Both the position numbers and the translations under genes were made by a program. From Nemophila menziesii (lineage: Eukaryota > Streptophyta > Magnoliopsida > Boraginales > Hydrophyllaceae), in the NCBI GenBank assembly GCA_029959085.1, contig JARWIR010000011.1, positions 10,665,840-10,729,839 on the forward strand: a stretch of DNA of 64,000 nt, in the 5' to 3' direction. This document shows positions 1 through 40,887 of the stretch, piece after piece (the first letter of the stretch is position 1; each line of letters begins with the position of its first letter). The notes under the pieces are model-generated. The model made no database searches. It saw only the letters and a list, made by a program, of their open reading frames with translations, and was not told where the DNA came from.

Positions 1-438
1 TACACAAAAAATATATTCACAATATATCTTTTTCTTTAGTTCAGTTCTAATATTTCTCAACACCTTATCATACAGAGTTTGCTCTTTTGATCTTGTGAAA
101 GGATTTGCCAAGATTATCAACAATACCCTCTAGGGAATTCACCCAATTTATATTTAACAGTCAAAATTTTGACTCTCTTAAAAATGTATCATTCATTAGC
201 TACGTATATAAACATGCAATTTCATATTTTGAGATTTTTTATGTTATTATTTAATTAAGATATTTCAGAAATAACATTTATATATTAAAACACAATTTGT
301 TGTTTTAAATAATATAATAAAATTTAATGTTAAATTTTTAAATAATTTTTTTATTTATATGGTGTACATATTTTTTTAAGGGTCAATGATCCAAAAAATC
401 AAATTAATATTTTACTTGCCCCAAAGAATAATTAATTA

Positions 439-1080
439 ATCTGCTAAGTACGTCTTCTCATCAACATCGTTACCTTTTATTCTTGTTTATCAAGAGTTGT
501 GGATGTTTCCTTATGGGAATTCCAACCCACTTGGAATTAGTAAGTTCAAACTTCTTAATAAGATCTTTGGCTTATTTAGCTTGGTTGAGACAGATCCCAT
601 CTTCCATTTTCTTTATTTTTAGTCTGAGGAAGAAGTTAAATTCTCCAATCATGTGCAATTGGAATTCACTATGCATACTCGTATCAAAATCCTTATAAAA
701 TCGTTATAAACTCTTCATGCATTGCATTTACCAAATGATCATCAAGTAGATCTTATTTGTTATTCTTCGGTCTGAATTTAGACAAGAAAGTACAATGAGA
801 ACACAAATCATTAAGAGTTGAATGTGTTCTTAGCCCTTTACTTGGATCACCAAGTATTAACTTTAGCAAGAGTCCTCTAACATTGTTCCTACTTCTATGA
901 AGTTCTTTGGGAGTTTCATCATTCTTCTCTTTAATAGTTTGATTGTCAGAATATATTTATGGTTATGATATAATAGGTTTTACTTCTTCTTCAAGTTGAT
1001 GGAACTTGGTATATTCAACTTTTATATTTTTTCACTTTCTTTTAAAAGAATTTCCTTCATCAAAATCAACGTGCATGGAT
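439..1080 (-). pseudogene. Ty1-copia pol relic (integrase end + RT with core deleted), unit 1
   Basis: Read on the minus strand from 1,080 down, the frame gives SMHVDFDEGNS, matching the copia integrase C-terminal ES(I/M)HVxFDE motif. It continues through a spacer to ILGDPSKGLRTHSTLNDLC and NAMHEEF, the conserved entry to the RVT_2 domain. The frame then jumps, with stops, to DTSMHSEFQLHMIGEF, NFFLRLKIKKMEDGICLNQAK, AKDLIKKFELTNSK and NDVDEKTYLAD, which are the late RT/thumb motifs. Everything between, including the catalytic YVDD region, is missing, so this is an internal deletion. In-frame stops after NQAK and elsewhere confirm decay. The 71-codon plus-strand ORF at 483-698 is only the antisense of this relic. 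Essentially the same relic occurs in every unit. Confidence 0.9.
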
Positions 1081-1329
1081 TTTTATATAATATTTGTTTG
1101 TTGGTTGTACATTCTAAAATAACATGTAGTGTAATTAACAATTAGTTTTATACAAAAGTTTGATAAATTCTCAATTAGATTTAATGAATAATTAATAATT
1201 GTATTTTTTTTTTAAAATAGAAGGAATTATGTGTTATTAAAGTAACCTAAATATTCAAGTATATTAAAGCATAAATGTCATAATTAAAGTTTTTTATGTG
1301 AATTGTGGATAAACTTATTGTTATAAAAA

Positions 1330-1743
1330 ATGATAGAGTTATTATCATCAAACTCATCATTGTTTCCTAAAATATTTGTAAAAAGTTTTCAAATATTTGG
1401 TTTTTTGTTTGATATAAGAGAGTGTTTGTAATCACGTAAAAAATCATAAGATTTTTAATACCATCGTCTAATTTATCTTAAGATAAACATAAGTTAGATT
1501 TGAACTTTACCTCGTCTTCTTCTTTTTAAGTAGCCATGAAAGAAACTTAGTTGGATACATGCTCTTTGTCATCACTTTGGTTTGAGCTATCATAAACCAA
1601 TGTTGCATTAATGTTTTCATTGGCTTTTTTTTGAAATTTTTTGGGAATTTAGGTTTGATATGACCACTGTTATGATAATGATAGCAAGTAAGCTCATCCT
1701 TTATATAACTCTTATAAGGTTTTCTTGAGACACCATAACTCAT
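1330..1743 (-). pseudogene. Ty1-copia gag relic with broken zinc knuckle, unit 1
   Basis: The minus-strand 78-codon frame (1,743 to 1,507) contains LTCYHYHNSGHIKPKFPK. Copia Gag has CX2CX4HX4C here. The second and fourth ligands are Y and F, so the knuckle cannot bind zinc normally. A lysine-rich tail follows; a one-base slip in the A run (T run on the plus strand) throws the reading out of the ancestral frame, whose continuation (NINATLVYDSSNQSDDKEHV) is still legible in another frame. Downstream, 1,330-1,506 retains the copia gag-protease spacer style (LCLS.DKLDDGIKNL). The ORF is a relic, not a host gene. Confidence 0.85.
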
Positions 1744-2520
1744 AAGCTCTATTTTATTTTGATGTAATACTCACCAATACATACTTATGTCTTGTATAGA
1801 ATTCCTCTTGAACTAATATAATCATTTCACCCAGAATAAAACAATAATACACATATCCTTTTTTCTTTTCTCCTTTTAGTTAAAGATTTTTTTTTTGGAA
1901 CTATTAACAATAAAATTATATTTATAACATTATGTACTACTAAAATCTTTATTTTATAAAAATATATTCAATAAAAAATATTTATTTAATGAACATATAA
2001 TACCCACGACTCCAATTCTACTCTTTACTTCTTAAAATTATATATATATATTAAAATATTTCTATTATACTAAACTAGTTTTGGATACACAAAAAATATA
2101 TTCACAATATATCTTTTTCTTTAGTTCAGTTCTAATATTTCTCAACACCTTATCATACAGAGTTTGCTCTTTTGATCTTGTGAAAGGATTTGCCAAGATT
2201 ATCAACAATACCCTCTATGGAATTCACCCAATTTATATTTAACAGTCAAAATTTTGACTCTCTTAAAAATGTATCATTCATTAGCTACGTATATAAACAT
2301 GCAATTTCATATTTTGAGATTTTTTATGTTATTATTTAATTAAGATATTTCAGAAATAACATTTATATATTAAAACACAATTTGTTGTTTTAAATAATAT
2401 AATAAAATTTAATGTTAAATTTTTAAATAATTTTTTTATTTATATGGTGTACATATTTTTTTAAGGGTCAATGATCCAAAAAATCAAATTAATATTTTAC
2501 TTGCCCCAAAGAATAATTAA
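1744..2520. other. AT-rich leader/LTR-position DNA spanning the unit 1/2 boundary
   Basis: About 770 bp between the gag 5' end of one unit and the pol 3' end of the next. No ORF. It contains a pyrimidine-rich plus-strand tract near 1,859-1,880 (purine-rich on the element strand), a (TA)n run near 2,040, and AT-rich DNA up to the join near 2,520. This is where an LTR should sit if the array is internal-LTR-internal-LTR. I could not find TG...CA ends or a Met-tRNA primer-binding site, so it is not called an LTR. Confidence 0.6.
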
Positions 2521-4171
2521 TTAATCTGCTAAGTACGTCTTCTCATCAACATCGTTACCTTTTATTCTTGTTTATCAAGAGTTGTGGATTTTTCCTTATG
2601 GGAATTCCAACCCACTTGGAATTAGTAAGTTCAAACTTCTTAATAAGATCTTTGGCTTATTTAGCTTGGTTGAGACAGATCCCATCTTCCATTTTCTTTA
2701 TTTTTAGTCTGAGGAAGAAGTTAAATTCTCCAATCATGTGCAATTGGAATTCACTACGCATACTCGTATCAAAATCCTTATAAAATCGTTATAAACTCTT
2801 CATGCATTGCATTGACCAAATGATCATCAAGTAGATCTTATTTGTTATTCTTCGGTCTGAATTTAGACAAGAAAGTACAATGAGAACACAAATCATTAAG
2901 AGTTGAATGTGTTCTTAGCCCTTTACTTGGATCACCAAGTATTAACTTTAGCAAGAGTCCTCTAACATTGTTCCTACTTCTATGAAGTTCTTTGGGAGTT
3001 TCATCATTCTTCTCTTTAATAGTTTGATTGTCAGAATATATTTATGGTTATGATATAATAGGTTTTACTTCTTCTTCAAGTTGATGGAACTTGGTATATT
3101 CAACTTTTATATTTTTTCACTTTCTTTTAAAAGAATTTCCTTCATCAAAATCAACGTGCATGGATTTTTATATAATATTTGTTTGTTGGTTGTACATTCT
3201 AAAATAACATGTAGTGTAATTAACAATTAGTTTTATACAAAAGTTTGATAAATTCTCAATTAGATTTAATGAATAATTAATAATTGTATTTTTTTTTTAA
3301 AATAGAAGGAATTATGTGTTATGAAAGTAACCTAAATATTCAAGTATATTAAAGCATAAATTTCATAATTAAAGTTTTTTATGTGAATTGTGGATAAACT
3401 TATTGTTATAAAAAATGATAGAGTTATTATCATCAAACTCATCATTGTTTCCTAAAATATTTGTAAAAAGTTTTCAAATATTTGGTTTTTTGTTTGATAT
3501 AAGAGAGTGTTTGTAATCACGTAAAAAATCATAAGATTTTTAATACCATCGTCCAATTGATCTTAAGATAAACATAAGTTAGATTTGAACTTTACCTCGT
3601 CTTCTTCTTTTTAAGTAGCCATGAAAGAAACTTAGTTGGATACATGCTCTTTGTCATCACTTTGGTTTGAGCTATCATAAACCAATGTTGCATTAATGTT
3701 TTCATTGGCTTTTTTTTGAAAAGTTTTGGGAATTTAGGTTTGATATGACCACTCTTATGATAATGATAGCAAGTAAGCTCATCCTTTATATAACTCTTAT
3801 AAGGTTTTCTTGAGACACCATAACTCATAAGCTCTATTTTATTTTGATGTAATACTCACCAATACATACTTATGTCTTGTATAGAATTCCTCTTGAACTA
3901 ATATAATCATTTCACCCAGAATAAAACAATAATACACATATCCTTTTTTCTTTTCTCCTTTTAGTTAAAGATTTTTTTTTTTGGAACTATTAACAATAAA
4001 ATTATATTTATAACATTATGTACTACTAAAATCTTTATTTTATAAAAATATATTCAATAAAAAATATTTATTTAATGAACATATAATACCCACGACTCCA
4101 ATTCTACTCATTACTTCTTAAAATTATATATATATATTAAAATATTTCTATTATACTAAACTAGTTTTGGA
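2086..4171 (-). repeat. Array unit 2
   Basis: Pairs with unit 3: both have GTGGATTTTTCC in the pol relic, CTACGCATAC, ATTGACCAAATG, GTTATGAAAGTAACC and CCAATTGATC. Gag relic at 3,592-3,828. Confidence 0.95.
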
Positions 4172-6258
4172 TACACAAAAAATATATTCACAATATATCT
4201 TTTTCTTTAGTTCAGTTCTAATATTTCTCAACACCTTATCATACAGAGTTTGCTCTTTTGATCTTGTGAAAGGATTTGCCAAGATTATCAACAATACCCT
4301 CTAGGGAATTCACCCAATTTATATTTAACAGTCAAAATTTTGACTCTCTTAAAAATGTATCATTCATTAGCTACGTATATAAACATGCAATTTCATATTT
4401 TGAGATTTTTTATGTTATTATTTAATTAAGATATTTCAGAAATAACATTTATATATTAAAACACAATTTGTTGTTTTAAATAATATAATAAAATTTAATG
4501 TTAAATTTTTAAATAATTTTTTTATTTATATGGTGTAAATATTTTTTTAAGGGTCAATGATCCAAAAAATCAAATTAATATTTTACTTGCCCCAAAGAAT
4601 AATTAATTAATCTGCTAAGTACGTCTTCTCATCAACATCGTTACCTTTTATTCTTGTTTATCAAGAGTTGTGGATTTTTCCTTATGGGAATTCCAACCCA
4701 CTTGGAATTAGTAAGTTCAAACTTCTTAATAAGATCTTTGGCTTATTTAGCTTAGTTGAGACAGATCCCATCTTCCATTTTCTTTATTTTTAGTCTGAGG
4801 AAGAAGTTAAATTCTCCAATCATGTGCAATTGGAATTCACTACGCATACTCGTATCAAAATCCTTATAAAATCGTTATAAACTCTTCATGCATTGCATTG
4901 ACCAAATGATCATCAAGTAGATCTTATTTGTTATTCTTCGGTCTGAATTTAGACAAGAAAGTACAATGAGAACACAAATCATTAAGAGTTGAATGTGTTC
5001 TTAGCCCTTTACTTGGATCACCAAGTATTAACTTTAGCAAGAGTCCTCTAACATTGTTCCTACTTCTATGAAGTTCTTTGGGAGTTTCATCATTCTTCTC
5101 TTTAATAGTTTGATTGTCAGAATATATTTATGGTTATGATATAATAGGTTTTACTTCTTCTTCAAGTTGATGGAACTTGGTATATTCAACTTTTATATTT
5201 TTTCACTTTCTTTTAAAAGAATTTCCTTCATCAAAATCAACGTGCATGGATTTTTATATAATATTTGTTTGTTGGTTGTACATTCTAAAATAACATGTAG
5301 TGTAATTAACAATTAGTTTTATACAAAAGTTTGATAAATTCTCAATTAGATTTAATGAATAATTAATAATTGTATTTTTTTTTTTAAAATAGAAGGAATT
5401 ATGTGTTATGAAAGTAACCTAAATATTCAAGTATATTAAAGCATAAATTTCATAATTAAAGTTTTTTATGTGAATTGTGGATAAACTTATTGTTATAAAA
5501 AATGATAGAGTTATTATCATCAAACTCATCATTGTTTCCTAAAATATTTGTAAAAAGTTTTCAAATATTTGGTTTTTTGTTTGATATAAGAGAGTGTTTG
5601 TAATCACGTAAAAAATCATAAGATTTTTAATACCATCGTCCAATTGATCTTAAGATAAACATAAGTTAGATTTGAACTTTACCTCGTCTTCTTCTTTTTA
5701 AGTAGCCATGAAAGAAACTTAGTTGGATACATGCTCTTTGTCATCACTTTGGTTTGAGCTATCATAAACCAATGTTGCATTAATGTTTTCATTGGCTTTT
5801 TTTTGAAAAGTTTTGGGAATTTAGGTTTGATATGACCACTCTTATGATAATGATAGCAAGTAAGCTCATCCTTTATATAACTCTTATAAGGTTTTCTTGA
5901 GACACCATAACTCATAAGCTCTATTTTATTTTGATGTAATACTCACCAATACATACTTATGTCTTGTATAGAATTCCTCTTGAACTAATATAATCATTTC
6001 ACCCAGAATAAAACAATAATACACATATCCTTTTTTCTTTTCTCCTTTTAGTTAAAGATTTTTTTTTTTGGAACTATTAACAATAAAATTATATTTATAA
6101 CATTATGTACTACTAAAATCTTTATTTTATAAAAATATATTCAATAAAAAATATTAATTTAATGAACATATAATACCCACGACTCCAATTCTACTCTTTA
6201 CTTCTTAAAATTATATATATATATTAAAATATTTCTATTATACTAAACTAGTTTTGGA
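4172..6258 (-). repeat. Array unit 3
   Basis: Twin of unit 2. It has an extra stop in the pol relic, where CTTAGTTGAG near 4,751 replaces CTTGGTTGAG, turning the Q of the NQAK motif into a stop. Gag relic at 5,679-5,915. Confidence 0.95.
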
Positions 6259-8342
6259 TACACAAAAAATATATTCACAATATATCTTTTTCTTTAGTTC
6301 AGTTCTAATATTTCTCAACACCTTATCATACAGAGTTTGCTCTTTTGATCTTGTGAAAGGATTTGCAAAGATTATCAACAATACCCTCTAGGGAATTCAC
6401 CCAATTTATATTTAACAGTCAAAATTTTGACTCTCTTAAAAATGTATCATTCATTAGCTACGTATATAAACATGCAATTTCATATTTTAAGTTTTTTTAT
6501 GTTATTATTTAATTAAGATATTTCAGAAATAACATATATATATTAAGACACAATTTGTTGTTTTAAATAATATAATAAAATTTAATGTTAAATTTTTAAA
6601 TAATTTTTTTATTTATATGGTGTACATATTTTTTTAAGGGTCAATGATCCAAAAAATCAAATTAATATTTTACTTGCCCCAAAGAATAATTAATTAATCT
6701 GCTAAGTACGTCTTCTCATCAACATCGTTACCTTTTATTCTTGTTTATCAAGAGTTGTGGATGTTTCCTTATGGGAATTCCAACCCACTTGGAATTAGTA
6801 AGTTCAAACTTCTTAATAAGATCTTTGGATTATTTAGCTTGGTTGAGACAGATCCCATCTTCCATTTTCTTTATTTTTAGTCTGAGGAAGAAGTTAAATT
6901 CTCCAATCATGTGCAATTGGAATTCACTATGCATACTCGTATCAAAATCCTTATAAAATCGTTATAAACTCTTCATGCATTGCATTTACCAAATGATCAT
7001 CAAGTAGATCTTATTTGTTATTCTTCGGTCTGAATTTAGACAAGAAAGTACAATGAGAACATAAATCATTAAGAGTTGAATGTGTTCTTAGCCCTTTACT
7101 TGGATCACCAAGTATTAACTTTAGCAAGAGTCCTCTAACATTGTTCCTACTTCTATGAAGTTCTTTGGGAGTTTCATCATTCTTCTCTTTAATAGTTTGA
7201 TTGTCAGAATATATTTATGGTTATGATATAATAGGTTTTACTTCTTCTTCAAGTTGATGGAACTTGGTATATTCAACTTTTATATTTTTTCACTTTCTTT
7301 TAAAAGAATTTCCTTCATCAAAATCAACGTGCATGGATTTTTATATAATATTTGTTTGTTGGTTGTACATTCTAAAATAACATGTAGTGTAATTAACAAT
7401 TAGTTTTATACAAAAGTTTGATAAATTCTCAATTAGATTTAATGAATAATTAATAATTGTATTTTTTTTTTAAAATAGAAGGAATTATGTGTTATTAAAG
7501 TAACCTAAATATTCAAGTATATTAAAGCATAAATGTCATAATTAAAGTTTTTTATGTGAATTGTGGATAAACTTATTGTTATAAAAAATGATAGAGTTAT
7601 TATCATCAAACTCATCATTGTTTCCTAAAATATTTGTAAAAAGTTTTCAAATATTTGGTTTTTTGTTTGATATAAGAGAGTGTTTGTAATCACGTAAAAA
7701 ATCATAAGATTTTTAATACCATCGTCTAATTGATCTTAAGATAAACATAAGTTAGATTTGAACTTTACCTCGTCTTCTTCTTTTTAAGTAGCCATGAAAG
7801 AAACTTAGTTGGATACATGCTCTTTGTCATCACTTTGGTTTGAGCTATCATAAACCAATGTTGCATTAATGTTTTCATTTGCTTTTTTTTGAAAAGTTTT
7901 GGGAATTTAGGTTTGATATGACCACTCTTATGTTAATGATAGCAAGTAAGCTCATCCTTTATATAACTCTTATAAGGTTTTCTTGAGACACCATAACTCA
8001 TAAGCTCTATTTTATTTTGATGTAATACTCACCAATACATACTTATGTCTTGTATAGAATTCCTCTTGAACTAATATAATCATTTCACTCAGAATAAAAC
8101 AATAATACACATATCCTTTTTTCTTTTCTCCTTTTAGTTAAAGATTTTTTTTTGGAACTATTAACAATAAAATTATATTTATAACATTATGTACTACTAA
8201 AATCTTTATTTTATAAAAATATATTCAATAAAAAATATTTATTTAATGAACATATAATACCCACGACTCCAATTCTACTCTTTACTTCTTAAAATTATAT
8301 ATATATATTAAAATATTTCTATTATACTAAACTAGTTTTGGA
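6259..8342 (-). repeat. Array unit 4
   Basis: The gag relic (about 7,765-8,001) has an additional stop inside the zinc knuckle: TTATGTTAATG near 7,930 replaces TTATGATAATG, changing a tyrosine codon to TAA. The pol relic has a D in place of A in the antisense reading near 6,829. Confidence 0.95.
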
Positions 8343-10428
8343 TACACAAAAAATATATTCACAATATATCTTTTTCTTTAGTTCAGCTCTAATATTTCTC
8401 AACACCTTATCATACAGAGTTTGCTCTTTTGATCTTGTGAAAGGATTTGCCAAGATTATCAACAATACCCTCTAGGGAATTCACCCAATTTATATTTAAC
8501 AGTCAAAATTTTGACTCTCTTAAAAATGTATCATTCATTAGCTACGTATATAAACATGCAATTTCATATTTTGAGTTTTTTTATGTTATTATTTAATTAA
8601 GATATTTCAGAAATAACATTTATATATTAAGACACAATTTGTTGTTTTCAATAATATAATAAAATTTAATGTTAAATTTTTAAATAATTTTTTTATTTAT
8701 ATGGTGTACATATTTTTTTAAGGGTCAATGATCCAAAAAATCAAATTAATATTTTACTTGCCCCAAAGAATAATTAATTAATCTGCTAAGTACGTCTTCT
8801 CATCAACATCGTTACCTTTTATTCTTGTTTATCAAGAGTTGTGGATGTTTCCTTATGGGAATTCCAACCCACTTGGAATTAGTAAGTTCAAACTTCTTAA
8901 TAAGATCTTTGGCTTATTTAGCTTGGTTGAGACAGATCCCATCTTCCATTTTCTTTATTTTTAGTCTGAGGAAGAAGTTAAATTCTCCAATCATGTGCAA
9001 TTGGAATTCACTATGCATACTCGTATCAAAATCCTTATAAAATCGTTATAAACTCTTCATGCATTGCATTTACCAAATGATCATCAAGTAGATCTTATTT
9101 GTTATTCTTCGGTCTGAATTTAGACAAGAAAGTACAATGAGAACACAAATCATTAAGAGTTGAATGTGTTCTTAGCCCTTTACTTGGATCACCAAGTATT
9201 AACTTTAGCAAGAGTCCTCTAACATTGTTCCTACTTCTATGAAGTTCTTTGGGAGTTTCATCATTCTTCTCTTTAATAGTTTGATTGTCAGAATATATTT
9301 ATGGTTATGATATAATATGTTTTACTTCTTCTTCAAGTTGATGGAACTTGGTATATTCAACTTTTATATTTTTTCACTTTCTTTTAAAAGAATTTCCTTC
9401 ATCAAAATCAACGTGCATGGATTTTTATATAATATTTGTTTGTTGGTTGTACATTCTAAAATAACATGTAGTGTAATTAACAATTAGTTTTATACAAAAG
9501 TTTGATAAATTCTCAATTAGATTTAATGAATAATTAATAATTGTATTTTTTTTTTTAAAATAGAAGGAATTATGTGTTATTAAAGTAACCTAAATATTCA
9601 AGTATATTAAAGCATAAATGTCATAATTAAAGTTTTTTATGTGAATTGTGGATAAACTTATTGTTATAAAAATTGATAGAGTTATTATCATCAAACTCAT
9701 CATTGTTTCCTAAAATATTTGTAAAAAGTTTTCAAATATTTGGTTTTTTGTTTGATATAAGAGAGTGTTTGTAATCACGTAAAAAATCATAAGATTTTTA
9801 ATACCATCGTCTAATTGATCTTAAGATAAACATAAGTTAGATTTGAACTTTACCTCGTCTTCTTCTTTTTAAGTAGCCATGAAAGAAACTTAGTTGGATA
9901 CATGCTCTTTGTCATCACTTTGGTTTGAGCTATCATAAACCAATGTTGCATTAATGTTTTCATTGGCTTTTTTTTGAAAAGTTTTGGGAATTTAGGTTTG
10001 ATATGACCACTCTTATGATAATGATAGCAAGTAAGCTCATCCTTTATATAACTCTTATAAGGTTTTCTTGAGACACCATAACTCATAAGCTCTATTTTAT
10101 ATTGATGTAATACTCACCAATACATACTTATGTCTTGTATAGAATTCCTCTTGAACTAATATAATCATTTCACCCAGAATAAAACAATAATACACATATC
10201 CTTTTTTCTTTTCTCCTTTTAGGTAAAGATTTTTTTTTTGGAACTATTAACAATAAAATTATATTTATAACATTATGTACTACTAAAATCTTTATTTTAT
10301 AAAAATATATTCAATAAAAAATATTTATTTAATGAACATATAATACCCACGACTCCAATTCTACTCTTTACTTCTTAAAATTATATATATATATTAAAAT
10401 ATTTCTATTATACTAAACTAGTTTTGGA
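8343..10428 (-). repeat. Array unit 5
   Basis: Near-identical twin of unit 6. Shared private variants: GTTCAGCTCTAAT, TTGTTTTCAATAAT, ATAATATGTTTTAC, AAAAATTGATAGAG, TTTTATATTGATG and TTTAGGTAAAG. Gag relic at 9,850-10,086. Confidence 0.95.
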
Positions 10429-12511
10429 TACACAAAAAATATATTCACAATATATCTTTTTCTTTAGTTCAGCTCTAATATTTCTCAACACCTTATCATA
10501 CAGAGTTTGCTCTTTTGATCTTGTGAAAGGATTTGCCAAGATTATCAACAATACCCTCTAGGGAATTCACCCAATTTATATTTAACAGTCAAAATTTTGA
10601 CTCTCTTAAAAATGTATCATTCATTAGCTACGTATATAAACATGCAATTTCATATTTTGAGTTTTTTTATGTTATTATTTAATTAAGATATTTCAGAAAT
10701 AACATTTATATATTAAGACACAATTTGTTGTTTTCAATAATATAATAAAATTTAATGTTAAATTTTTAAATAATTTTTTTATTTATATGGTGTACATATT
10801 TTTTTAAGGGTCAATGATCCAAAAAATCAAATTAATATTTTACTTGCCCCAAAGAATAATTAATTAATCTGCTAAGTACGTCTTCTCATCAACATCGTTA
10901 CCTTTTATTCTTGTTTATCAAGAGTTGTGGATGTTTCCTTATGGGAATTCCAACCCACTTGGAATTAGTAAGTTCAAACTTCTTAATAAGATCTTTGGCT
11001 TATTTAGCTTGGTTGAGACAGATCCCATCTTCCATTTTCTTTATTTTTAGTCTGAGGAAGAAGTTAAATTCTCCAATCATGTGCAATTGGAATTCACTAT
11101 GCATACTCGTATCAAAATCCTTATAAAATCGTTATAAACTCTTCATGCATTGCATTTACCAAATGATCATCAAGTAGATCTTATTTGTTATTCTTCGGTC
11201 TGAATTTAGACAAGAAAGTACAATGAGAACACAAATCATTAAGAGTTGAATGTGTTCTTAGCCCTTTACTTGGATCACCAAGTATTAACTTTAGCAAGAG
11301 TCCTCTAACATTGTTCCTACTTCTATGAAGTTCTTTGGGAGTTTCATCATTCTTCTCTTTAATAGTTTGATTGTCAGAATATATTTATGGTTATGATATA
11401 ATATGTTTTACTTCTTCTTCAAGTTGATGGAACTTGGTATATTCAACTTTTATATTTTTTCACTTTCTTTTAAAAGAATTTCCTTCATCAAAATCAACGT
11501 GCATGGATTTTTATATAATATTTGTTTGTTGGTTGTACATTCTAAAATAACATGTAGTGTAATTAACAATTAGTTTTATACAAAAGTTTGATAAATTCTC
11601 AATTAGATTTAATGAATAATTAATAATTGTATTTTTTTTTTTAAAATAGAAGGAATTATGTGTTATTAAAGTAACCTAAATATTCAAGTATATTAAAGCA
11701 TAAATGTCATAATTAAAGTTTTTTATGTGAATTGTGGATAAACTTATTGTTATAAAAATTGATAGAGTTATTATCATCAAACTCATCATTGTTTCCTAAA
11801 ATATTTGTAAAAAGTTTTCAAATATTTGGTTTTTTGTTTGATATAAGAGAGTGTTTGTAATCACGTAAAAAATCATAAGATTTTTAATACCATCGTCTAA
11901 TTGATCTTAAGATAAACATAAGTTAGATTTGAACTTTACCTCGTCTTCTTCTTTTTAAGTAGCCATGAAAGAAACTTAGTTGGATACATGCTCTTTGTCA
12001 TCACTTTGGTTTGAGCTATCATAAACCAATGTTGCATTAATGTTTTCATTGGCTTTTTTTTGAAAAGTTTTGGGAATTTAGGTTTGATATGACCACTCTT
12101 ATGATAATGATAGCAAGTAAGCTCATCCTTTATATAACTCTTATAAGGTTTTCTTGAGACACCATAACTCATAAGCTCTATTTTATATTGATGTAATACT
12201 CACCAATACATACTTATGTCTTGTATAGAATTCCTCTTGAACTAATATAATCATTTCACCCAGAATAAAACAATAATACACATATCCTTTTTTCTTTTCT
12301 CCTTTTAGGTAAAGATTTTTTTTTTGGAACTATTAACAATAAAATTATATTTATAACATTATGTACTACTAAAATCTTTATTTTATAAAAATATATTCAA
12401 TAAAAAATATTTATTTAATGAATATATAATACCCACGACTCCAATTCTACTCTTTACTTCTTAAAATTATATATATATTAAAATATTTCTATTATACTAA
12501 ACTAGTTTTGA
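10429..12511 (-). repeat. Array unit 6
   Basis: Twin of unit 5, carrying the same private variants, so one copied the other recently. The difference I noticed is confined to the distal end: GAATATATAATACC and a shorter (TA)n tract near 12,420-12,480. Gag relic at 11,936-12,172. Confidence 0.95.
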
Positions 12512-25031: not shown

Positions 25032-27111
25032 TACACAAAAAATATATTCACAATATATCTTTTTCTTTAGTTCAGTTCTAATATTTCTCAACTCCTTATC
25101 ATACAGAGTTTGCTCTTTTGATCTTTTGAAAGGATTTGCCAAGATTATCAACAATACCCTCTAGGGAATTCACCCAATTTATATTTAACAGTCAAAATTT
25201 TGACTCTCTTAAAAATGTATCATTCATTAGCTACGTATATAAACATGCAATTTCATATTTTGAGTTTTTTTATGTTATTATTTAATTAAGATATTTCAGA
25301 AATAACATTTATATATTAAGGCACAATATGTTGTATTAAATAATATAATAAAATTTAATATTAAATTTTTAAATAAATTTTTTATTTAAAAGATGTACAT
25401 ATTTTTTTAAGGGTCAATGATCCAAAAAATCAAATTAATATTTTACTTGCCCCAAAGAATAATTAATTAATCTGTTAAGTACGTCTTCTCATCAACATCG
25501 TTACCTTTTATTCTTGTTTATCAAGAGTTGTGGATGTTTCCTTATGGGAATTCCAACCCACTTGGAATTAGTAAGTTCAAACTTCTTAATAAGATCTTTG
25601 GCTTATTTAGCTTGGTTGAGACAGATCCCATCTTCCATTTTCTTTATTTTTAGTCTGAGGAAGAAGTGAAATTCTCCAATCATGTGCAATTGGAATTTAC
25701 TATGCATACTCGTATCAAAATCCTTATGAAATTGTTATTAACTCTTTATGCATTGCATTTACCAAATGATCATCAAGTAGATCTTATTTGTTATTCTTTG
25801 GTCTGAATTTAGACAAGAAAGTACAATGAGAACACAAATCATTAAGAGTTAAATGTGTTCTAGCCCTTTACTTGGATCACCAAGCATTAACTTTAGCAAG
25901 AGTCCTCTAACATTGTTCCTACTTCTATGAAGTTCTTTGGGAGTTTCATCATTCTTCTCTTTAATAGTTTGAATGTCAGAATAAATTTAAGGTTGTGATA
26001 TAATAGGTTTTACTTCTTCTTCAAGTTGATGGAACTTGGTATATTCAATTTTTATATTTTTTCACTTTATTTTAAAAGAATTTCCTTCATCAAAATCAAC
26101 GTGCATGGATTTTTATATAATATTTGTTTGTTGGTTGTACATTCTAAAATGACATGTAGTGTAATTAACCATTAGTTTTAGACAAAAGTTTGATAAATTC
26201 TCAATTAGATTTAATGAATAATTAATAATTGTATTTTTTTTTTAAAAATAGAAGGAATTATGTGTTATTAAAGTAACCTAAATATTCAAGTATATTAAAG
26301 CATAAATTTCATAATTAAAGTTTTATGTGAATTGTGGATAAACTTATTGTTATAAAAAATGATAGAGTTATTATCATCAAACTCATCATTGTTTCCTAAA
26401 ATATTTGTAAAAAGTTTTCAAAAATTTGGTTTTTTGTTTGATATAAGAGAGTGTTTGTAATCATGTAAAAAATCATAAGATTTTTAATACCATCGTCTAA
26501 TTGATCTTAAGATAAACATAAGTTAGATTTGAACTTTACCTCGTCTTCTTCTTTTTAAGTAGCCATGAAAGAAACTTAGTTGGATACATGCTCTTTGTCA
26601 TCACTTTGGTTTGAGCTATCATAAACCAATGTTGCAATAATGTTTTCAATGGTTTTTTTTTGAAAAGTTTTGGGAATTTAGATTTGATATGACCACTCTT
26701 ATGATAATGATAGCAAGTAAGCTCATCCTTTATATAACTCTTATAAGGTTTTCTTGAGACACCATAACTCATAAGCTCTATTTTATTTTGATGTAATACT
26801 CACCAATACATACTTATGTCTTGTATAGAATTCCTCTTGAACTAATATAATCATTTCACCCAGAATAAAAAAATAATACACATATCCTTTTTTCTTTTCT
26901 CCTTTTAGTTAAAGATTTTTTTTTGGAACTATTAACAATAAAATTATATTTATAACATTATGTACTACTAAAATCTTTATTTTATAAAAATATATTCAAT
27001 AAAAAATATTTATTTAATGAACATATAATACCCACGACTCCAATTCAACTCTTTACTTCTTAAAATTATATATATATTAAAATATTTCTATTATACTAAA
27101 CTAGTTTTGGA
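25032..27111 (-). repeat. Array unit 13
   Basis: Counterpart of unit 9, with the same diagnostic set (CAACTCCTTATC, TTAAGGCACAATATG, GAAGTGAAATTC). Gag relic at 26,536-26,772 carries S for P after HIK. Confidence 0.95.
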
Positions 27112-29197
27112 TACACAAAAAATATATTCACAATATATCTTTTTCTTTAGTTCAGTTCTAATATTTCTCAACACCTTATCATACAGAGTTTGCTCTTTTG
27201 ATCTTGTGAAAGGATTTGCCAAGATTATCAACAATACCCTCTAGGGAATTCACCCAATTTATATTTAACAGTCAAAATTTTGACTCTCTTAAAAATGTAT
27301 CATTCATTAGCTACGTATATAAACATGCAATTTCATATTTTGAGTTTTTTTATGTTATTATTTAATTAAGATATTTCAGAAATAACATTTATATATTAAG
27401 ACACAATTTGTTGTATTAAATAATATAATAAAATTTAATGTTAAATTTTTAAATAATTTTTTTATTTATATGGTGTACATATTTTTTTAAGGGTCAATGA
27501 TCCAAAAAATCAAATTAATATTTTACTTGCCCCAAAGAATAATTAATTAATCTGCTAAGTACGTCTTCTCATCAACATCGTTACCTTTTATTCTTGTTTA
27601 TCAAGAGTTGTGGATGTTTCCTTATGGGAATTCCAACCCACTTGGAATTAGTAAGTTCAAACTTCTTAATAAGATATTTGGCTTATTTAGCTTGGTTGAG
27701 ACAGATCCCATCTTCCATTTTCTTTATTTTTAGTCTGAGAAAGAAGTTAAATTCTCCAATCATGTGCAATTGGAATTCACTATGCATACTCGTATCAAAA
27801 TCCTTATAAAATCGTTATAAACTCTTCATGCATTGCATTTACCAAATGATCATCAAGTAGATTTTATTTGTTATTCTTCGGTCTGAATTTAGACAAGAAA
27901 GTACAATGAGAACACAAATCATTAAGAGTTGAATGTGTTCTTAGCCCTTTACTTGGATCACCAAGTATTAACTTTAGCAAGAGTCCTCTAACATTGTTCC
28001 TACTTCTATGAAGTTCTTTGGGAGTTTTATCATTCTTCTCTTTAATAGTTTGATTGTCAGAATATATTTATGGTTATAATATAATAGGTTTTACTTCTTC
28101 TTTAAGTTGATGGAACTTGGTATATTCAACTTCTATATTTTTTCACTTTCTTTTAAAAGAATTTCCTTCATCAAAATCAACGTGCATGGATTTTTATATA
28201 ATATTTTTTGGTTGTACATTCTAAAATAACATGTAGTGTAATTAACAATTAGTTTTATACAAAAGTTTGATAAATTCTCAATTAGATTTAATGAATAATT
28301 AATAATTGTATTTTTTTTTTAAAATAGAAGGAATTATGTGTTATTAAAGTAACCTAAATATTCAATTATATTAAAGCATAAATTTCATAATTAAAGTTTT
28401 TTATGTGAATTGTGGATAAACTTATTGTTATAAAAAATGATAGAGTTATTATCATCAAACTCATCATTGTTTCCTAAAATATTTGTAAAAAGTTTTCAAA
28501 AATTTGGTTTTTTGTTTGATATAAGAGAGTGTTTGTAATCACGTAAAAAATCATAAGATTTTTAATACCATCGTCTAATTGATCTTAAGATAAACATAAG
28601 TTAGATTTGAACTTTACCTCGTCTTCTTCTTTTTAAGTAGCCATGAAAGAAACTTAGTTGGATACATGCTCTTTGTCATCACTTTGATTTGAGCTATCAT
28701 AAACCAATGTTGCATTAATGTTTTCATTGTCTTTTTTTTGAAAAGTTTTGGGAATTTAGGTTTGATATGACCACTCTTATGATAATGATAGCAAGTAAGC
28801 TCATCCTTTATATAACTCTTATAAGGTTTTCTTGAGACACCATAACTCATAAGCTCTGTTTTATTTTGATGTAATACTCACCAATACATACTTATGTCTT
28901 GTATAGAATTCCTCTTGAACTAATATAATCATTTCACCCAGAATAAAACAATAATACACATATCCTTTTTTCTTTTCTCCTTTTAGTTAAAGATTTTTTT
29001 TTGGAACTATTAACAATAAAATTATATTTATAACATTATGTACTACTAAAATCTTTATTTTATAAAAATATATTCAATAAAAAATATTTATTTAATGAAC
29101 ATATAATACCCACGACTCCAATTCTACTCTTTACTTCTTAAAATTATATATATATATATATATTAAAATATTTCTATTATACTAAACTAGTTTTGGA
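27112..29197 (-). repeat. Array unit 14
   Basis: Twin of unit 15: both have CTGAGAAAGAAG, a deletion giving ATATTTTTTGGTTG, CAATTATATTAAAG and AGCTCTGTTTTATT. Gag relic at 28,614-28,850. Confidence 0.95.
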
Positions 29198-31279
29198 TAC
29201 ACAAAAAATATATTCACAATATATCTTTTTCTTTAGTTCAGTTCTAATATTTCTCAACACCTTATCATACAGAGTTTGCTCTTTTGATCTTGTGAAAGGA
29301 TTTGCCAAGATTATCAACAATACCCTCTAGAGAATTCACCCAATTTATATTTAACAGTCAAAATTTTGACTCTCTTAAAAATGTATCATTCATTAGCTAC
29401 GTATATAAACATGCAATTTCATATTTTGAGTTTTTTTATGTTATTATTTAATTAAGATATTTCAGAAATAACATTTATATATTAAGACACAATTTGTTGT
29501 ATTAAATAATATAATAAAATTTAATGTTAAATTTTTAAATAATTTTTTTATTTATATGGTGTACATATTTTTTTAAGGATCAATGATCCAAAAAATCAAA
29601 TTAATATTTTACTTGCCCCAAAGAATAATTAATTAATCTGCTAAGTACGTCTTCTCATCAACATCGTTACCTTTTATTCTTGTTTATCAAGAGTTGTGGA
29701 TGTTTCCTTATGGGAATTCCAACCCACTTGGAATTAGTAAGTTCAAACTTCTTAATAAGATATTTGGCTTATTTAGCTTGGTTGAGACAGATCCCATCTT
29801 CCATTTTCTTTATTTTTAGTCTGAGAAAGAAGTTAAATTCTCCAATCATGTGCAATTGGAATTCACTATGCATACTCGTATCAAAATCCTTATAAAATCG
29901 TTATAAACTCTTCATGCATTGCATTTACCAAATGATCATCAAGTAGATTTTATTTGTTATTCTTCGGTCTGAATTTAGACAAGAAAGTACAATGAGAACA
30001 CAAATCATTAAGAGTTGAATGTGTTCTTAGCCCTTTACTTGGATCACCAAGTATTAACTTTAGCAAGAGTCCTCTAACATTGTTCCTACTTCTATGAAGT
30101 TCTTTGGGAGTTTTATCATTCTTCTCTTTAATAGTTTGATTGTCAGAATATATTTATGGTTATGATATAATAGGTTTTACTTCTTCTTTAAGTTGATGGA
30201 ACTTGGTATATTCAACTTCTATATTTTTTCACTTTCTTTTAAAAGAATTTCCTTCATCAAAATCAACGTGCATGGATTTTTATATAATATTTTTTGGTTG
30301 TACATTCTAAAATAACATGTAGTGTAATTAACAATTAGTTTTATACAAAAGTTTGATAAATTCTCAATTAGATTTAATGAATAATTAATAATTGTATTTT
30401 TTTTTTAAAATTGAAGGAATTATGTGTTATTAAAGTAACCTAAATATTCAATTATATTAAAGCATAAATTTCATAATTAAAGTTTTTTATGTGAATTGTG
30501 GATAAACTTATTGTTATAAAAAATGATAGAGTTATTATCATCAAACTCATCATTGTTTCCTAAAATATTTGTAAAAAGTTTTCAAAAATTTGGTTTTTTG
30601 TTTGATATAAGAGAGTGTTTGTAATCACGTAAAAAATCATAAGATTTTTAATACCATCGTCTAATTGATCTTAAGATAAACATAAGTTAGATTTGAACTT
30701 TACCTCGTCTTCTTCTTTTTAAGTAGCCATGAAAGAAACTTAGTTGGATACATGCTCTTTGTCATCACTTTGGTTTGAGCTATCATAAACCAATGTTGCA
30801 TTAATGTTTTCATTGGCTTTTTTTTGAAAAGTTTTGGGAATTTAGGTTTGATATGACCACTCTTATGATAATGATAGCAAGTAAGCTCATCCTTTATATA
30901 ACTCTTATAAGGTTTTCTTGAGACACCATAACTCATAAGCTCTGTTTTATTTTGATGTAATACTCACCAATACATACTTATGTCTTGTATAGAATTCCTC
31001 TTGAACTAATATAATCATTTCACCCAGAATAAAACAATAATACACATATCCTTTTTTCTTTTCTCCTTTTAGTTAAAGATTTTTTTTTGGAACTATTAAC
31101 AATAAAATTATATTTATAACATTATGTACTACTAAAATCTTTATTTTATAAAAATATATTCAATAAAAAATATTTATTTAATGAACATATAATACCCACG
31201 ACTCCAATTCTACTCTTTACTTCTTAAAATTATATATATATATATTAAAATATTTCTATTATACTAAACTAGTTTTGGA
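29198..31279 (-). repeat. Array unit 15
   Basis: Twin of unit 14, sharing the same deletion and substitutions. Gag relic at 30,700-30,936. Confidence 0.95.
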
Positions 31280-33365
31280 TACACAAAAATTATATTCACA
31301 ATATATCTTTTTCTTTAGTTCAGTTCTAATATTTCTCAACACCTTATCATACAGAGTTTGCTCTTTTGATCTTGTGAAAGGATTTGCCAAGATTATCAAC
31401 AATACCCTCTAGGGAATTCACCCAATTTATATTTAACAGTCAAAATTTTGACTCTCTTAAAAATGTATCATTTATTAGCTACGTATATAAACATGCAATT
31501 TCATATTTTGAGTTTTTTTATGTTATTATTTAATTAAGATATTTCAGAAATAACATTTATATATTAAGACACAATTTGTTGTATTAAATAATATAATAAA
31601 ATTTAATGTTTAATTTTTAAATAATTTTTTTATTTATATGGTGTACATATTTTTTTAAGGGTCAATGATCCAAAAAATCAAATTAATATTTTACTTGCCC
31701 CAAAGAATAATTAATTAATCTGCTAAGTACGTCTCCTCATCAACATCGTTACCTTTTATTCTTGTTTATCAAGAGTTGTGGATGTTTCCTTATGGGAATT
31801 CCAAACCACTTGGAATTAGTAAGTTCAAACTTCTTAATAAGATCTTTGGCTTATTTAGCTTGGTTGAGACGGATCCCATCTTCCATTTTCTTTATTTTTA
31901 GTCTGAGAAAGAAGTTAAATTCTCCAATCATGTGCAATTGGAATTCACTATGCATACTCGTATCAAAATCCTTATAAAATCGTTATAAACTCTTCATGCA
32001 TTGCATTTACCAAATGATCATCACGTAGATCTTATTTGTTATTCTTCGGTCTGAATTTAGACAAGAAAGTAAAATGAGAACACAAATCATTAAGAGTTGA
32101 ATGTGTTCTTAGCCCTTCACTTGGATCACCAAGTATTAACTTTAGCAAGAGTCCTCTAACATTGTTCCTACTTCTATGAAGTTCTTTGGGAGTTTCATCA
32201 TTCTTCTCTTTAATAGTTTGATTGTCAGAATATATTTATGGTTATGATATAATAGGTTTTACTTCTTCTTCAAGTTGATGGAACTTGGTATATTCAACTT
32301 TTATATTTTTTCACTTTCTTTTAAAAGAATTTCCTTCATCAAAATCAACGTGCATGGATTTTTATATTATATTTGTTTGTTGGTTGTACATTCTAAAAAT
32401 AACATGTAGTGTAATTAACAATTAGTTTTATACAAAAGTTTGATAAATTCTCAATTAGATTTAATGAATAATTAATAATTGTATTTTTTTTTTAAAATAG
32501 AAGGAATTATGTGTTATTAAAGTAACCTAAATATTCAAGTATATTAAAGCATAAATGTCATAATTAAAGTTTTTTATGTGAATTGTGGATAAACTTATTG
32601 TTATAAAAAATGATAGAGTTATTATCATCAAACTCATCATTGTTTCCTAAAATATTTGTAAAAAGTTTTCAAATATTTAGTTTTTTGTTTGATATAAGAG
32701 AGTGTTTGTAATCACGTTAAAAATCATAAGATTTTTAATACCATCGTCTAATTGATCTTAAGATAAACATAAGTTAGATTTGAACTTTACCTCGTCTTCT
32801 TCTTTTTAAGTAGCCATGAAAGAAACTTAGTTGGATACATGCTCTTTGTCATCACTTTGGTTTGAGCTATCATAAACCAATGTTGCATTAATGTTTTCAT
32901 TGGCTTTTTTTTTGAAAAGTTTTGGGAATTTAGGTTTGATATGACCACTCTTATGATAATGATAGCAAGTAAGCTCATCCTTTATATAACTCTTATAAGG
33001 TTTTCTTGAGACACCATAACTCATAAGCTCTATTTTATTTTGATGTAATACTCACCAATACATACTTATGTCTTGTATAGAATTCCTCTTGAACTAATAT
33101 AATCATTTCACCCAGAATAAAACAATAATACACATATCCTTTTTTCTTTTCTCCTTTTAGTTAAAGATTTTTTTTTGGAACTATTAACAATAAAATTATA
33201 TTTATAACATTATGTACTACTAAAATCTTTATTTTATAAAAATATATTCAATAAAAAATATTTATTTAATGAACATATAATACCCACGACTCCAATTCTA
33301 CTCTTTACTTCTTAAAATTATATATATATATTAAAATATTTCTATTATACTAAACTAGTTTTGGA
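31280..33365 (-). repeat. Array unit 16
   Basis: Has an extra T in the run at about 32,905-32,913 that shifts the gag relic frame, and ATTCTAAAAATAAC near 32,390. Also carries GATCATCACGTAGATC, shared with unit 17. Confidence 0.95.
32787..33024 (-). pseudogene. Copia gag relic with ancestral frame restored by a 1-bp insertion (unit 16)
   Basis: This copy has nine Ts after GGC where other units have eight. On the minus strand the zinc-knuckle frame therefore runs straight into the ancestral acidic/serine stretch (SSNQSDDKEHV) and stops at 32,827. In other units these two parts lie in different frames. The knuckle ligands are still degraded (C-Y-H-F), so the copy is not functional. A homopolymer sequencing or assembly error would look the same. 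Confidence 0.75.
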
Positions 33366-35435
33366 TACACAAAAAATATATTCACAATATATCTTTTTCT
33401 TTAGTTCAGTTCTAATATTTCTCAACACCTTATCATACAGAGTTTGCTCTTTTGATCTTGTGAAAGGATTTGCCAAGATTATCAACAATACCCTCTACGG
33501 AATTCACCCAATTTATGTCAAAATTTTGACTCTCTTAAAAATGTATCATTCATTAGCTACGTATATAAACATGCAATTTCATATTTTGAGTTTTTTTATG
33601 TTATTATTTAATTAAGATATTTCAGAAATAACATTTATATATTAAGACACAATTTGTTGTTTTAAATAATATAATAAAATTTAATGTTAAATTTTTAAAT
33701 AAATTTTTTATTTATAAGGTGTACATATTTTTTTAAGGGTCAATGATCCAAAAAATCAAATTAATATTTTACTTGCCCCAAACAATAATTAATTAATCTG
33801 CTAAGTACGTCTTCTCATCAACATCGTTACCTTTTATTCTTGTTTATCAAGAGTTGTGGATGTTTCCTTATGGGAATTCCAACCCACTTGGAATTAGTAA
33901 GTTCAAACTTCTTAATAAGATCTTTGGCTTATTTAGCTTGGTTGAGACAGATCCCATCTTCCATTTTCTTTATTTTTAGTCTGAGGAAGAAGTTAAATTC
34001 TCCAATCATGTGCAATTGGAATTCACTATGCATACTCGTATCAAAATCCTTATAAAATCGTTATAAACTCTTCATGCATTGCATTTACCAAATGATCATC
34101 ACGTAGATCTTATTTGTTATTCTTCAGTCTGAATTTAGACAAGAAAGTACAATGAGAACACAAATCATTAAGAGTTGAATGTGTTCTTAGCCCTTTACTT
34201 GGATCACCAAGTATTAACTTTAGCAAGAGTCCTCTAACATTGTTCCTACTTCTATAAAGTTCTTTGGTAGTTTCATCATTCTTCTCTTTAATAGTTTGAT
34301 TGTCAGAATAAATTTAAGGTTATGATATAATAGGTTTTACTTCTTCTTCAAGTTGATGGAACTTGGTATATTCAACTTTTATATTTTTTCACTTTCTTTT
34401 AAAAGAATTTCCTTCATCAAAATCAACATGCATGGATTTTTATATAATATTTGTTTGTTGGTTGTACATTCTAAAATAACATGTAGTGTAATTAACAATT
34501 AGTTTTATACAAAAGTTTGATAAATTCTCAATTAGATTTAATTAATAATTAATAATTGTATTTTTTTTAAATAGAAGGAATTATGTGTTATTGAAGTAAC
34601 CTAAATATTCAAGTATATTAAAGCCTAAATGTCATAATTAAAGTTTTTTATGTGAATTGTGGATAAACTTATTGTTATAAAAAATGATAGAGTTATTATC
34701 ATCAAACTCATCATTGTTTCCTAAAATATTTGTAAAAAGTTTTCAAATATTTGGTTTTTTGTTTGATTTAAGAGAGTGTTCGTAATCACGTACAAAATCA
34801 TAAGATTTTTAATACCATCGTCTAATTGATCTTAAGATAAACATAAGTTAGATTTGAACTTTACCTCGTCTTCTTCTTTTTAAGTAGCCATGAAAGAAAC
34901 TTTGTTGGATACATGCTCTTTGTCATCACTTTGGTTTGAGCTATCATCAACCAATGTTGCATTAATGTTTTCATTGGCTTTTTTTTGAAACGTTTTGGGA
35001 ATTTAGGCTTGATATGACCACTCTTATGATAATGATAGCAAGTAAGCTCATCCTTTATATAACTCTTATTAGGTTTTCTTGAGACACCATAACTCATAAG
35101 CTCTATTTTATTTTGATGTAATACTCACCAATACACACTTATGTCTTGTATAGAATTCCTCTTGAACTAATATAATCATTTCACCCAGAATAAAACAATA
35201 ATACACATATCCTTTTTTCTTTTCTCCTTTTAGTTAAAGATTTTTTTTTTGGAACTATTAACAATAAAATTATATTTATAACATTATGTACTACTAAAAT
35301 CTTTATTTTATAAAAATATATTCAATAAAAAATATTTATTTAATGAACATATAATACCCACGACTCCAATTCTACTCTTTACTTCTTAAAATTATATATA
35401 TTAAAATATTTCTATTATACTAAACTAGTTTTGGA
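33366..35435 (-). repeat. Array unit 17
   Basis: Shortest full unit (2,070 bp). It lacks about 10 bp of the TATATTTAACAGTCAAAA segment near 33,515, which opens a plus-strand frame at 33,361-33,615 with no recognisable product. It has more private substitutions than inner units, as expected near an array edge. Gag relic at 34,861-35,097. Confidence 0.95.
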
Positions 35436-36619
35436 TATACAAAAAATATATTCACAATATATCTTTTTCTTTAGTTCAGTTCTAATATTTCTCAACACCT
35501 TATCATACAGAGTTTGCTCTTTTGATCTTGTGAAAGGATTTGCCAAGATGATCAACAATACCCTCTGGGGAATTCACCAAATTTATATTTAACAGTCAAA
35601 ATTTTGACTCTCTAAAAAATGTATCATTCATTAGCTACGTATATAAACATGCAATTTCATATTTTGAGTTTTTTATGTTATTATTTAATTAAGATATTTC
35701 AGAAATAACATTTATATATTAAGGCACAATATGTTGTTTTAAATAATATAATAAAATTTAATATTAAATTTTTAAATAAATTTTTTATTTAAAAGATGTA
35801 CATATTTTTTTTTAAGGGTCAATGATCCAAAAAATCAAATTAATATTTTACTTGCCCCAAAGAATAATTAATTAATCTGTTAAGTACGTCTTCTCATCAA
35901 CATCGTTACCTTTTATTCTTGTTTATCAAGAGTTGTGGATGTTTCCTTATGGGAATTCCAACCCACTTGGAATTAGTAAGTTCAAACTTCTTAATAAGAT
36001 ATTTGGCTTATTTAGCTTGGTTGAGACAGATCCCATCTTCCATTTTCTTTATTTTTAGTCTGAGGAAGAAGTGAAATTCTCCAATCATGTGCAATTGGAA
36101 TTTACTATGCATACTCGTATCAAAATCCTTATAAAATCGTTATTAACTCTTCATGCATTGCATTTACCAAATGATCATCAAGTAGATCTTATTTGTTATT
36201 CTTTGGTCTGAATTTAGACAAGAAAGTACAATGAGAACACAAATCATTAAGAGTTGAATGTGTTCTAGCCCTTTACTTGGATCACCAAGCATTAACTTTA
36301 GCAAGAGTCCTCTAACATTGTTCCTACTTCTATGAAGTTCTTTGGGAGTTTCATCATTCTTCTCTTTAATAGTTTGAATGTCAGAATAAATTTAAGGTTG
36401 TGATATAATAGGTTTTACTTCTTCTTCAAGTTGATGGAACTTGGTATATTCAATTTTTATATTTTTTCACTTTATTTTAAAAGAATTTCCTTCATCAAAA
36501 TCAACGTGCATGGATTTTTATATAATATTTGTTTGTTGGTTGTACATTCTAAAATGACATGTAGTGTAATTAACCATTAGTTTTATACAAAAGTTTGATA
36601 AATTCTCAATTAGATTTAT
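35436..36619 (-). repeat. Array unit 18 (truncated)
   Basis: The last copy ends at about 36,619, inside the joining DNA beyond the integrase motif, so it has the leader and pol relic but no gag relic. Variants match units 9 and 13 and the older relic at 45 kb (TTAAGGTTGTGATATAAT, AAATGACATG, TTAACCATTAG). Confidence 0.93.
35878..36512 (-). pseudogene. Copia pol relic in terminal unit 18
   Basis: Same motif order as unit 1: the integrase HVDFDE end at about 36,488-36,511, then GDPSKG and the late RT motifs, with the RT core deleted. It sits directly left of block A, as the relic at 44,945-45,528 sits directly left of block B. Confidence 0.85.
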
Positions 36620-36856
36620 AAATTGCTAATTTCCAATGATATGGCTCAACAATTTTAGTACAATAGCAAAAAGAGTATGAAGAACGTACATTTAATAAAA
36701 AAGAAGAACCTGCTATGCTGATATTACCCAACTGAAAACTCTAATGTATATGTTCATTTAAAAAAAAGGTAGAACTATGAATGATATCTAACATATCCAT
36801 TCTAATTAATGAAAAAAAGAGTATTGTTATAATCATAATTTGAAAAATAATTGCAG
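36620..36856. other. Block A-specific 237-bp segment
   Basis: Separates the array edge from block A. It is absent at the equivalent point before block B, where GATAAA runs directly into GTGTAATCGTATG (45,610). No ORF, and I see no clear terminal inverted repeats. It is either an insertion in A or a deletion in B. Confidence 0.6.
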
Positions 36857-40880: not shown

Positions 40881-40887
40881 ATTTTGG

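What the first reader, a model, noticed from the sequence alone, without database searches (positions are those of the whole stretch)
1..36619. Retrotransposon relic amplified into a satellite-like 2.085-kb tandem array
At least 17.5 head-to-tail copies of a unit made of two broken Ty1-copia pieces and an LTR-position segment. Every copy carries the same RT-core deletion, so the element died first and was amplified as DNA afterwards. This looks like the birth of a long-unit satellite from a retrotransposon.
Basis: partly seen in the sequence, partly recalled or inferred. Interest (0 to 1): 0.8.

Follow-up and report, generated by a model that had tools for sequence, protein, structure and literature searches.

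The report
Dead retrotransposon scraps amplified in tandem
Scraps of what looks like a long-dead plant jumping gene were copied head to tail at least 17.5 times, most likely on the spot beside an older duplicated stretch of DNA that is still there to compare, an instance of a known way in which new satellite DNA arises.

Summary
Window 1-36618 holds 17 full copies and one 1184-bp copy of a ~2085-bp unit, head to tail, open at the window's left edge. All 18 copies share the join read as an RT-core deletion, so it came before the amplification. The Ty1-copia identity is likely but thin: a weak RVT_2 match (6 of 6 copies scanned) plus residues recalled as copia-like. The 'LTR-position' segment has no support as an LTR. 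To the right lies an older ~9-kb direct duplication (10.7% substitutions) with diverged single copies of the unit's pieces. The last array copy sits where block 1 should carry the counterpart of a block-2 piece, so the array most likely grew in place. Ancestral bases concentrate in the last two copies and in two mosaic copies inside. Close copies are mostly neighbours, and one block recurs four units on, as unequal exchange or conversion predicts. It is a new member of a known kind (maize CRM4TR). Genome-wide spread, species and chromosome position could not be tested.

The parts
1..36618 (.). Tandem array: 17 full copies and one 1184-bp copy of a ~2085-bp unit, open at the left window edge
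2085..4169 (.). Copy 2, used as reference for unit positions 1-2085
2660..2788 (-). RT thumb scrap of copy 2 (unit 576-704), RVT_2 profile positions 182-220 of 244
   Evidence: E 0.0094, below the curated cut-off; the piece was found by pattern in 18 of 18 copies, 6 of which were scanned
2783..3268 (-). Segment B (unit 699-1184), read as pol linker / RT start; unit 699-1168 is homologous to window 45148-45616
   Evidence: homology; coding identity from residues recalled as typical of plant copia, no Pfam hit
3269..3413 (.). 145-bp segment (unit 1185-1329) that begins at the inferred tandem joint 1184|1185; no match right of the array
   Evidence: (segment 1169-1329 searched)
3595..3855 (-). 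Open piece read as a gag scrap with a degenerate zinc knuckle (second and third Cys replaced) and acidic tail, unit 1511-1771
   Evidence: pattern found in 16 of 17 full copies, not in copy 4; motif recalled, no Pfam hit
35435..36618 (.). Last array copy (c18), ends at unit 1184; its B segment occupies the place of B in block 1
36134..44697 (.). Block 1 of an older ~9-kb direct duplication
45148..53158 (.). Block 2 of the same duplication, 10.7% substitutions from block 1
41218..42469 (.). X1: diverged single counterpart of unit 1330-2083 plus 1 to about 441-451
50242..51502 (.). X2: the block-2 counterpart of X1
45148..45616 (-). B2: block-2 counterpart of unit 699-1168
44830..45147 (-). Stretch contiguous with B2 that I read as the RT N-terminal region and that the array unit lacks
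   Evidence: translation; residues recalled as typical of copia RT, no Pfam hit for its short pieces

Best explanation
A decayed Ty1-copia-like locus, presumably in a plant, was first duplicated as ~9-kb blocks. A ~2.085-kb stretch at the left end of these blocks was later duplicated head to tail and expanded by unequal exchange and/or gene conversion between copies. The amplified stretch runs, in + orientation, from unit 1185 through segment X (gag scrap and AT-rich part) and the RT thumb to the end of segment B at unit 1184, so 1184|1185 is the tandem joint. The array is non-coding DNA amplified as DNA. Shown: the array, the shared join, the old blocks, the collinearity of the last copy with block 2, neighbour similarity, the block repeated at a four-unit offset, and mosaic copies 9 and 13. 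Inferred: copia identity of most scraps, local origin and polarity of growth, the tandem joint, the exchange mechanism and the order of the founding deletions.
For: (1) All 18 copies share the join near unit 699. (2) The right edge is collinear with the older duplication: c18's segment B matches B2 at 91%, and after 259 bp that block 2 lacks (the first ~18 still unit sequence) comes sequence matching what follows B2. The B divergence (8.8%) lies within the range along the block alignment (6.6-19.5% per 500-column bin, the last two bins, at the unaligned end, left out). (3) c18's homology to the unit stops at 1184 and runs into that flank. (4) Of 91 polarised variable sites, the majority base is derived at 13; there the ancestral base is kept by c18 at 7 of 9, c09 and c13 at 7 of 13 each, c17 at 6 of 13, and by each of the other 14 copies at 2 of 13 or fewer. 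(5) Of 6 mutual nearest pairs among the 17 full copies, 4 are adjacent (20,000 shuffles, P 0.0031); the other two (8-12, 9-13) share an offset of four units. (6) c09 and c13 differ from the majority mainly in their first two thirds, where they share 19 of 25 diagnostic sites with c18.
Against: The left edge lies outside the window, so growth in place is seen at one end only; an amplified circle recombined into B would look the same there. Unit 1169-1329 and the RT thumb have no counterpart right of the array, so the founding arrangement is not fully seen. Copy 2's X is further from X1 and X2 (12.7% and 14.6%) than these are from each other (8.8%), so it was not simply copied from X1: a third, older copy, or faster change. 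c09 and c13 also carry many derived bases (24 and 27 of 91, with c14 at 24 the highest), so they are an old separate lineage rather than simply ancestral. Private changes do not rise significantly along the array (Spearman 0.36, P 0.15), although the last two full copies have the most (12 and 17). The RVT_2 match is weak: among 74 block pieces an unrelated family reached E 0.015.
Confidence: 0.7

Rival explanations
1. LTR-sharing tandem: the unit is one LTR plus a deleted internal region, multiplied by unequal recombination between LTRs.
For: The scraps follow one another in the natural order on the minus strand around a non-coding segment; a 2025 review describes ectopic recombination between LTRs giving tandem elements that share one LTR (PMC12628747, passages).
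Against: The 12-base initiator-tRNA motif with up to 2 mismatches was sought from window 33365 on (copies 17 and 18 and all to the right); its 3 hits all lie beyond 56890. The array's right edge lies inside segment B, not at an end of the AT-rich segment. Not tested: other tRNA primers; TG...CA ends were only looked at by eye.
Confidence: 0.1
2. Rolling-circle amplification of an extrachromosomal circle, put back into the locus by homologous recombination.
For: Copy length is tight (2070-2091 bp) and most pairs differ by about 1-2%; recombination at the resident B would also give a collinear right edge.
Against: Relationships follow position (neighbour pairs, four-unit offset) and old variants survive at the edge and inside. 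Later exchange could, however, overwrite a star-like start.
Confidence: 0.15
3. Assembly artefact: the copy number is wrong or the array is partly false.
For: No reads could be examined; c05 and c06 differ by a single substitution.
Against: Copies carry their own substitutions and indels (83 columns with a minor state in two or more full copies, plus private ones), and the mosaic and block patterns would be odd products of an assembler.
Confidence: 0.05

Closest known systems
CRM4TR (and CRM1TR) of maize, Sharma et al. 2013, PMC3648361
   Same: Tandem arrays of long monomers (CRM4TR ~1370 nt) made wholly of retrotransposon sequence, local, with recombinant monomers (CRM1TR); the authors propose deletions first and growth by gene conversion, without excluding unequal exchange or rolling circles (abstract, passages and Discussion read).
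   Different: CRM is Ty3/gypsy; its monomers come from LTR-UTR and are 95-98% like a full element (CRM4TR). Here the scraps are read as Ty1-copia coding pieces, already decayed, with an older duplicated locus beside the array.
Potato long-monomer centromeric satellites and the Sobo 4.7-kb satellite
   Same: Kilobase monomers with retrotransposon-related sequence; Sobo is one ~360-kb pericentromeric locus.
   Different: Seen here only as summarised in PMC3648361. Sobo resembles gypsy LTRs; chromosome position is known there and unknown here.
Ogre-derived satellites of Lathyrus sativus, Vondrak et al. 2019, PMC7004042
   Same: Satellites that arise from retrotransposon sequence and expand at some loci (abstract and Discussion read).
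   Different: They start from short repeats already tandem in the 3' UTR; here a 2-kb stretch was made tandem.
'Transposon graveyard' hypothesis for composite satellite monomers, PMC12628747 (2025)
   Same: Degraded scraps in a rearranged locus become a monomer; this locus fits that scenario (passages and section 5 of the paper read).
   Different: The authors stress scraps of several element types; here the recognised scraps look like one copia-type element.

Membership tests
Retrotransposon-derived tandem repeat (CRM4TR kind) | Head-to-tail array | tested here: met
Retrotransposon-derived tandem repeat (CRM4TR kind) | Unit made of retrotransposon sequence | tested here: inconclusive
   Weak RVT_2 match in 6 of 6 copies scanned and in 1 of 55 pieces of copy 2; gag and linker rest on recalled motifs; no intact parent could be searched for.
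Retrotransposon-derived tandem repeat (CRM4TR kind) | Amplified as DNA, not by transposition | tested here: inconclusive
   No protease, integrase or RNase H match in 55 pieces of copy 2, the join is shared by 18 of 18 copies and the right edge is collinear with the old locus; copies elsewhere could not be looked for.
Retrotransposon-derived tandem repeat (CRM4TR kind) | Signs of exchange or conversion between copies | tested here: met
   Mosaic c09 and c13, four-unit-offset block, neighbour pairs
Satellite DNA in the strict sense | Long, homogenised array | tested here: met
   At least 36.6 kb; pairwise substitutions 0.0-2.6% among the 17 full copies, up to 3.3% with c18
Satellite DNA in the strict sense | Abundant in the genome; heterochromatic, centromeric or subtelomeric | not testable with these tools
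   The genome search did not complete
Intact Ty1-copia element | LTRs, primer-binding site, gag-PR-INT-RT-RH in order | tested here: not met
   Apart from the RVT_2 piece no such domain was matched in 55 pieces of copy 2; no initiator-tRNA primer-binding site in copies 17 and 18. At most derived from copia.

The most novel reading that the evidence does not exclude
The locus catches a satellite being born from a 'transposon graveyard' with the graveyard still in place: 9-kb blocks were duplicated first, then a 2.085-kb unit was multiplied, then a multi-unit block was repeated at a four-unit offset, each step younger than the last, with the likely founder copy c18 still at the edge.
Probability: 0.35. 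Interest if true: 0.6.

Novelty: new member of a known kind. Interest (0 to 1): 0.4.

Why it matters
How new satellites start is usually inferred from finished arrays whose founding locus is gone. Here the array, its most likely founder copy and an older diverged duplicate of the same locus lie within 54 kb, so the order of events, the tandem joint and the polarity of growth can be read from sequence and tested in relatives or other accessions. The process itself is already described in other plants.

Tried and rejected
LTR reading of the AT-rich segment: the initiator-tRNA primer-binding motif gave nothing in copies 17 and 18 beyond 10-base matches with two mismatches. Matches of unit 443-698 and 1169-1329 right of the array: none (nhmmer, filters off, best E 3.2 and 8.4). 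Homologues of the linker and gag scraps: no candidates; no retrotransposon Pfam family for either. Domain control: 55 pieces of copy 2 gave RVT_2 (one piece, E 0.0094) and CydS (E 0.056) only; 74 minus-strand pieces of 44700-53300 gave six unrelated families at E 0.015-0.096 and no retrotransposon family. Weak hits (phage MS2 lysis, Uso1, MFS) were taken as chance. Rfam and tRNA scans: nothing. Plasmid collection: no match. A trend of private changes towards the right edge is not significant. A methylation-like excess of C-to-T changes was not seen: 58 transitions to 77 transversions, although CG is depleted (11 seen, 33 expected). Eight paper searches, two of them for a copia-derived case, gave no copia-derived long-monomer precedent that I recognised from the listings; that is not proof of absence.

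Full report
What is there. The first 36.6 kb of the window is one tandem array. With window 2085-4169 as the reference unit, blastn finds 16 other full copies (97.4-99.7% identical) and an 18th ending at unit position 1184 (97.0%), all in one orientation. The 17 full copies are 2070-2091 bp long. The array is already running at base 1, so its true size is unknown. Its G+C content is 24-26%, against 26-33% to the right.

What the unit is made of. On the minus strand the unit carries scraps that I read, in the natural order of a Ty1-copia element, as a gag zinc knuckle with an acidic tail (unit 1771-1511; second and third Cys replaced), the linker before RT (unit ~1168-699) and the RT thumb (from unit ~704 down to ~443). 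Only the thumb has profile support: RVT_2 positions 182-220 of 244 match in 6 of 6 copies scanned, out of 18 (E 0.002-0.014, 15.4-18.2 bits against a cut-off of 31.6). That is weak. Scanning 55 stop-to-stop pieces of copy 2 gave RVT_2 once (E 0.0094) and one unrelated family (E 0.056), and 74 minus-strand pieces of the second block gave six unrelated families at E 0.015-0.096. The match counts because the family had been named beforehand and because it stands in order with the other scraps. The gag and linker readings rest on residues that I recall as typical of plant copia elements; no retrotransposon Pfam family matched them and the homologue searches were empty.

The deletion. The thumb starts at RVT_2 position 182 directly after the linker, so roughly the first 180 residues of that domain are missing. 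Block 2 runs without a break from the counterpart of the linker (B2) into what I read as the RT N-terminal half (44830-45147), which the array lacks. All 18 copies show the same join. No protease, integrase, RNase H or gag family was matched in copy 2; short scraps could escape that scan. The AT-rich segment called 'LTR-position' has no initiator-tRNA primer-binding-site match in copies 17 and 18, and I do not call it an LTR.

The context that changes the reading. Right of the array is a direct duplication with ~9.0 kb spacing, 36134-44697 and 45148-53158, in collinear pieces of 77-91% identity, with 10.7% substitutions over 7050 aligned sites. Each block holds one diverged counterpart of unit segment X, at 41218-42469 and 50242-51502, and block 2 begins with B2, the counterpart of unit 699-1168. 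In block 1 the place of B2 is held by the array's last copy, c18. Its B segment aligns to B2 with 8.8% substitutions, like the rest of the block; after 259 bp that block 2 lacks (the first ~18 still unit sequence), block sequence follows. c18 leaves the unit at position 1184 and runs straight into this flank. So c18 looks like the resident piece, and 1184|1185 like the joint made by tandem duplication. The array most likely arose at this spot from the left end of an already duplicated, already decayed locus. This is inference from one edge; the other lies outside the window.

How it grew. Pairwise substitution differences among the 17 full copies range from 0.0 to 2.6%, and up to 3.3% with c18. 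Six pairs of copies are mutual nearest neighbours; four of the six are adjacent (20,000 shuffles, P 0.0031). The other two, c08-c12 and c09-c13, share an offset of four units, and the similarity runs on into the first third of c10-c14: a repeated block, perhaps an incipient higher-order repeat. Copies c09 and c13 look like mosaics: they differ from the majority mainly over their first two thirds, and share with c18 19 of the 25 diagnostic sites in its span (27 in all). With B2, X1 and X2 as outgroups 91 variable sites could be polarised; in 78 the majority base is ancestral, in 13 derived. At those 13 the ancestral base survives in c18 (7 of 9), c09 and c13 (7 of 13 each) and c17 (6 of 13), and in each of the other 14 copies at 2 of 13 or fewer. 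That is what one expects if the right end is old and the bulk descends from a derived unit.

Results against a simple story. c09 and c13 also carry many derived bases (24 and 27 of 91), so they are an old separate lineage, not simply ancestral. Private changes are highest in the last two full copies (12 and 17), but the trend along the array is not significant (P 0.15). Copy 2's X is more distant from X1 and X2 (12.7%, 14.6%) than they are from each other (8.8%), so it was not simply copied from X1. Unit 1169-1329 and the RT thumb have no counterpart right of the array. Transitions do not exceed transversions among array variants (58 to 77), which I would not expect of methylated repeats and cannot explain. 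An extrachromosomal circle recombined into B cannot be excluded.

Comparison with what is known. The nearest case that I read is maize CRM4TR/CRM1TR (PMC3648361: abstract, passages, Discussion): long units wholly of retrotransposon sequence, local arrays, recombinant monomers, deletions first and conversion or exchange later. Its Discussion also summarises potato centromeric satellites with 979-bp to 5.4-kb monomers, the 4.7-kb Sobo repeat and rye E3900. Vondrak et al. (PMC7004042: abstract and Discussion) show satellites expanding from Ogre repeats. A 2025 review (PMC12628747: passages and section 5) says that gag or pol parts can become satellites and proposes that degraded 'graveyard' loci yield composite monomers. 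The present locus fits that proposal and adds a preserved older duplicate beside the array. I file it as a new member of a known kind.

Limits. The genome search tool did not complete, so species, copies elsewhere and chromosome position are unknown. A plant host is inferred from the copia remains; the one named homologue of a second copia relic in the window is from Linum perenne, which does not identify the species.

Noticed in passing
43798-44595 and 52338-53062: An imperfect inverted-repeat minisatellite of ~18-bp units (left half one strand, right half the other) in both 9-kb blocks, resembling subterminal repeats or a fold-back element.
   Followed up: no
57623-58453: A second copia relic on the minus strand: rve (E 2.5e-06), gag-pre-integrase and Pol_BBD matches; 54 homologues of the rve piece at 48-71% identity.
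   Followed up: partly
59254-60559 and 61907-63644: A third direct duplication at ~2.65-3.1 kb spacing, 69-84% identical in three pieces; the window holds tandem duplications of several sizes and ages.
   Followed up: no
1-36618: Low transition/transversion ratio among array variants (58:77) together with CG depletion (11 seen, 33 expected).
   Followed up: partly
36601-36859: 259 bp at the array-block 1 boundary that block 2 lacks: lost from block 2 or gained in block 1.
   Followed up: partly
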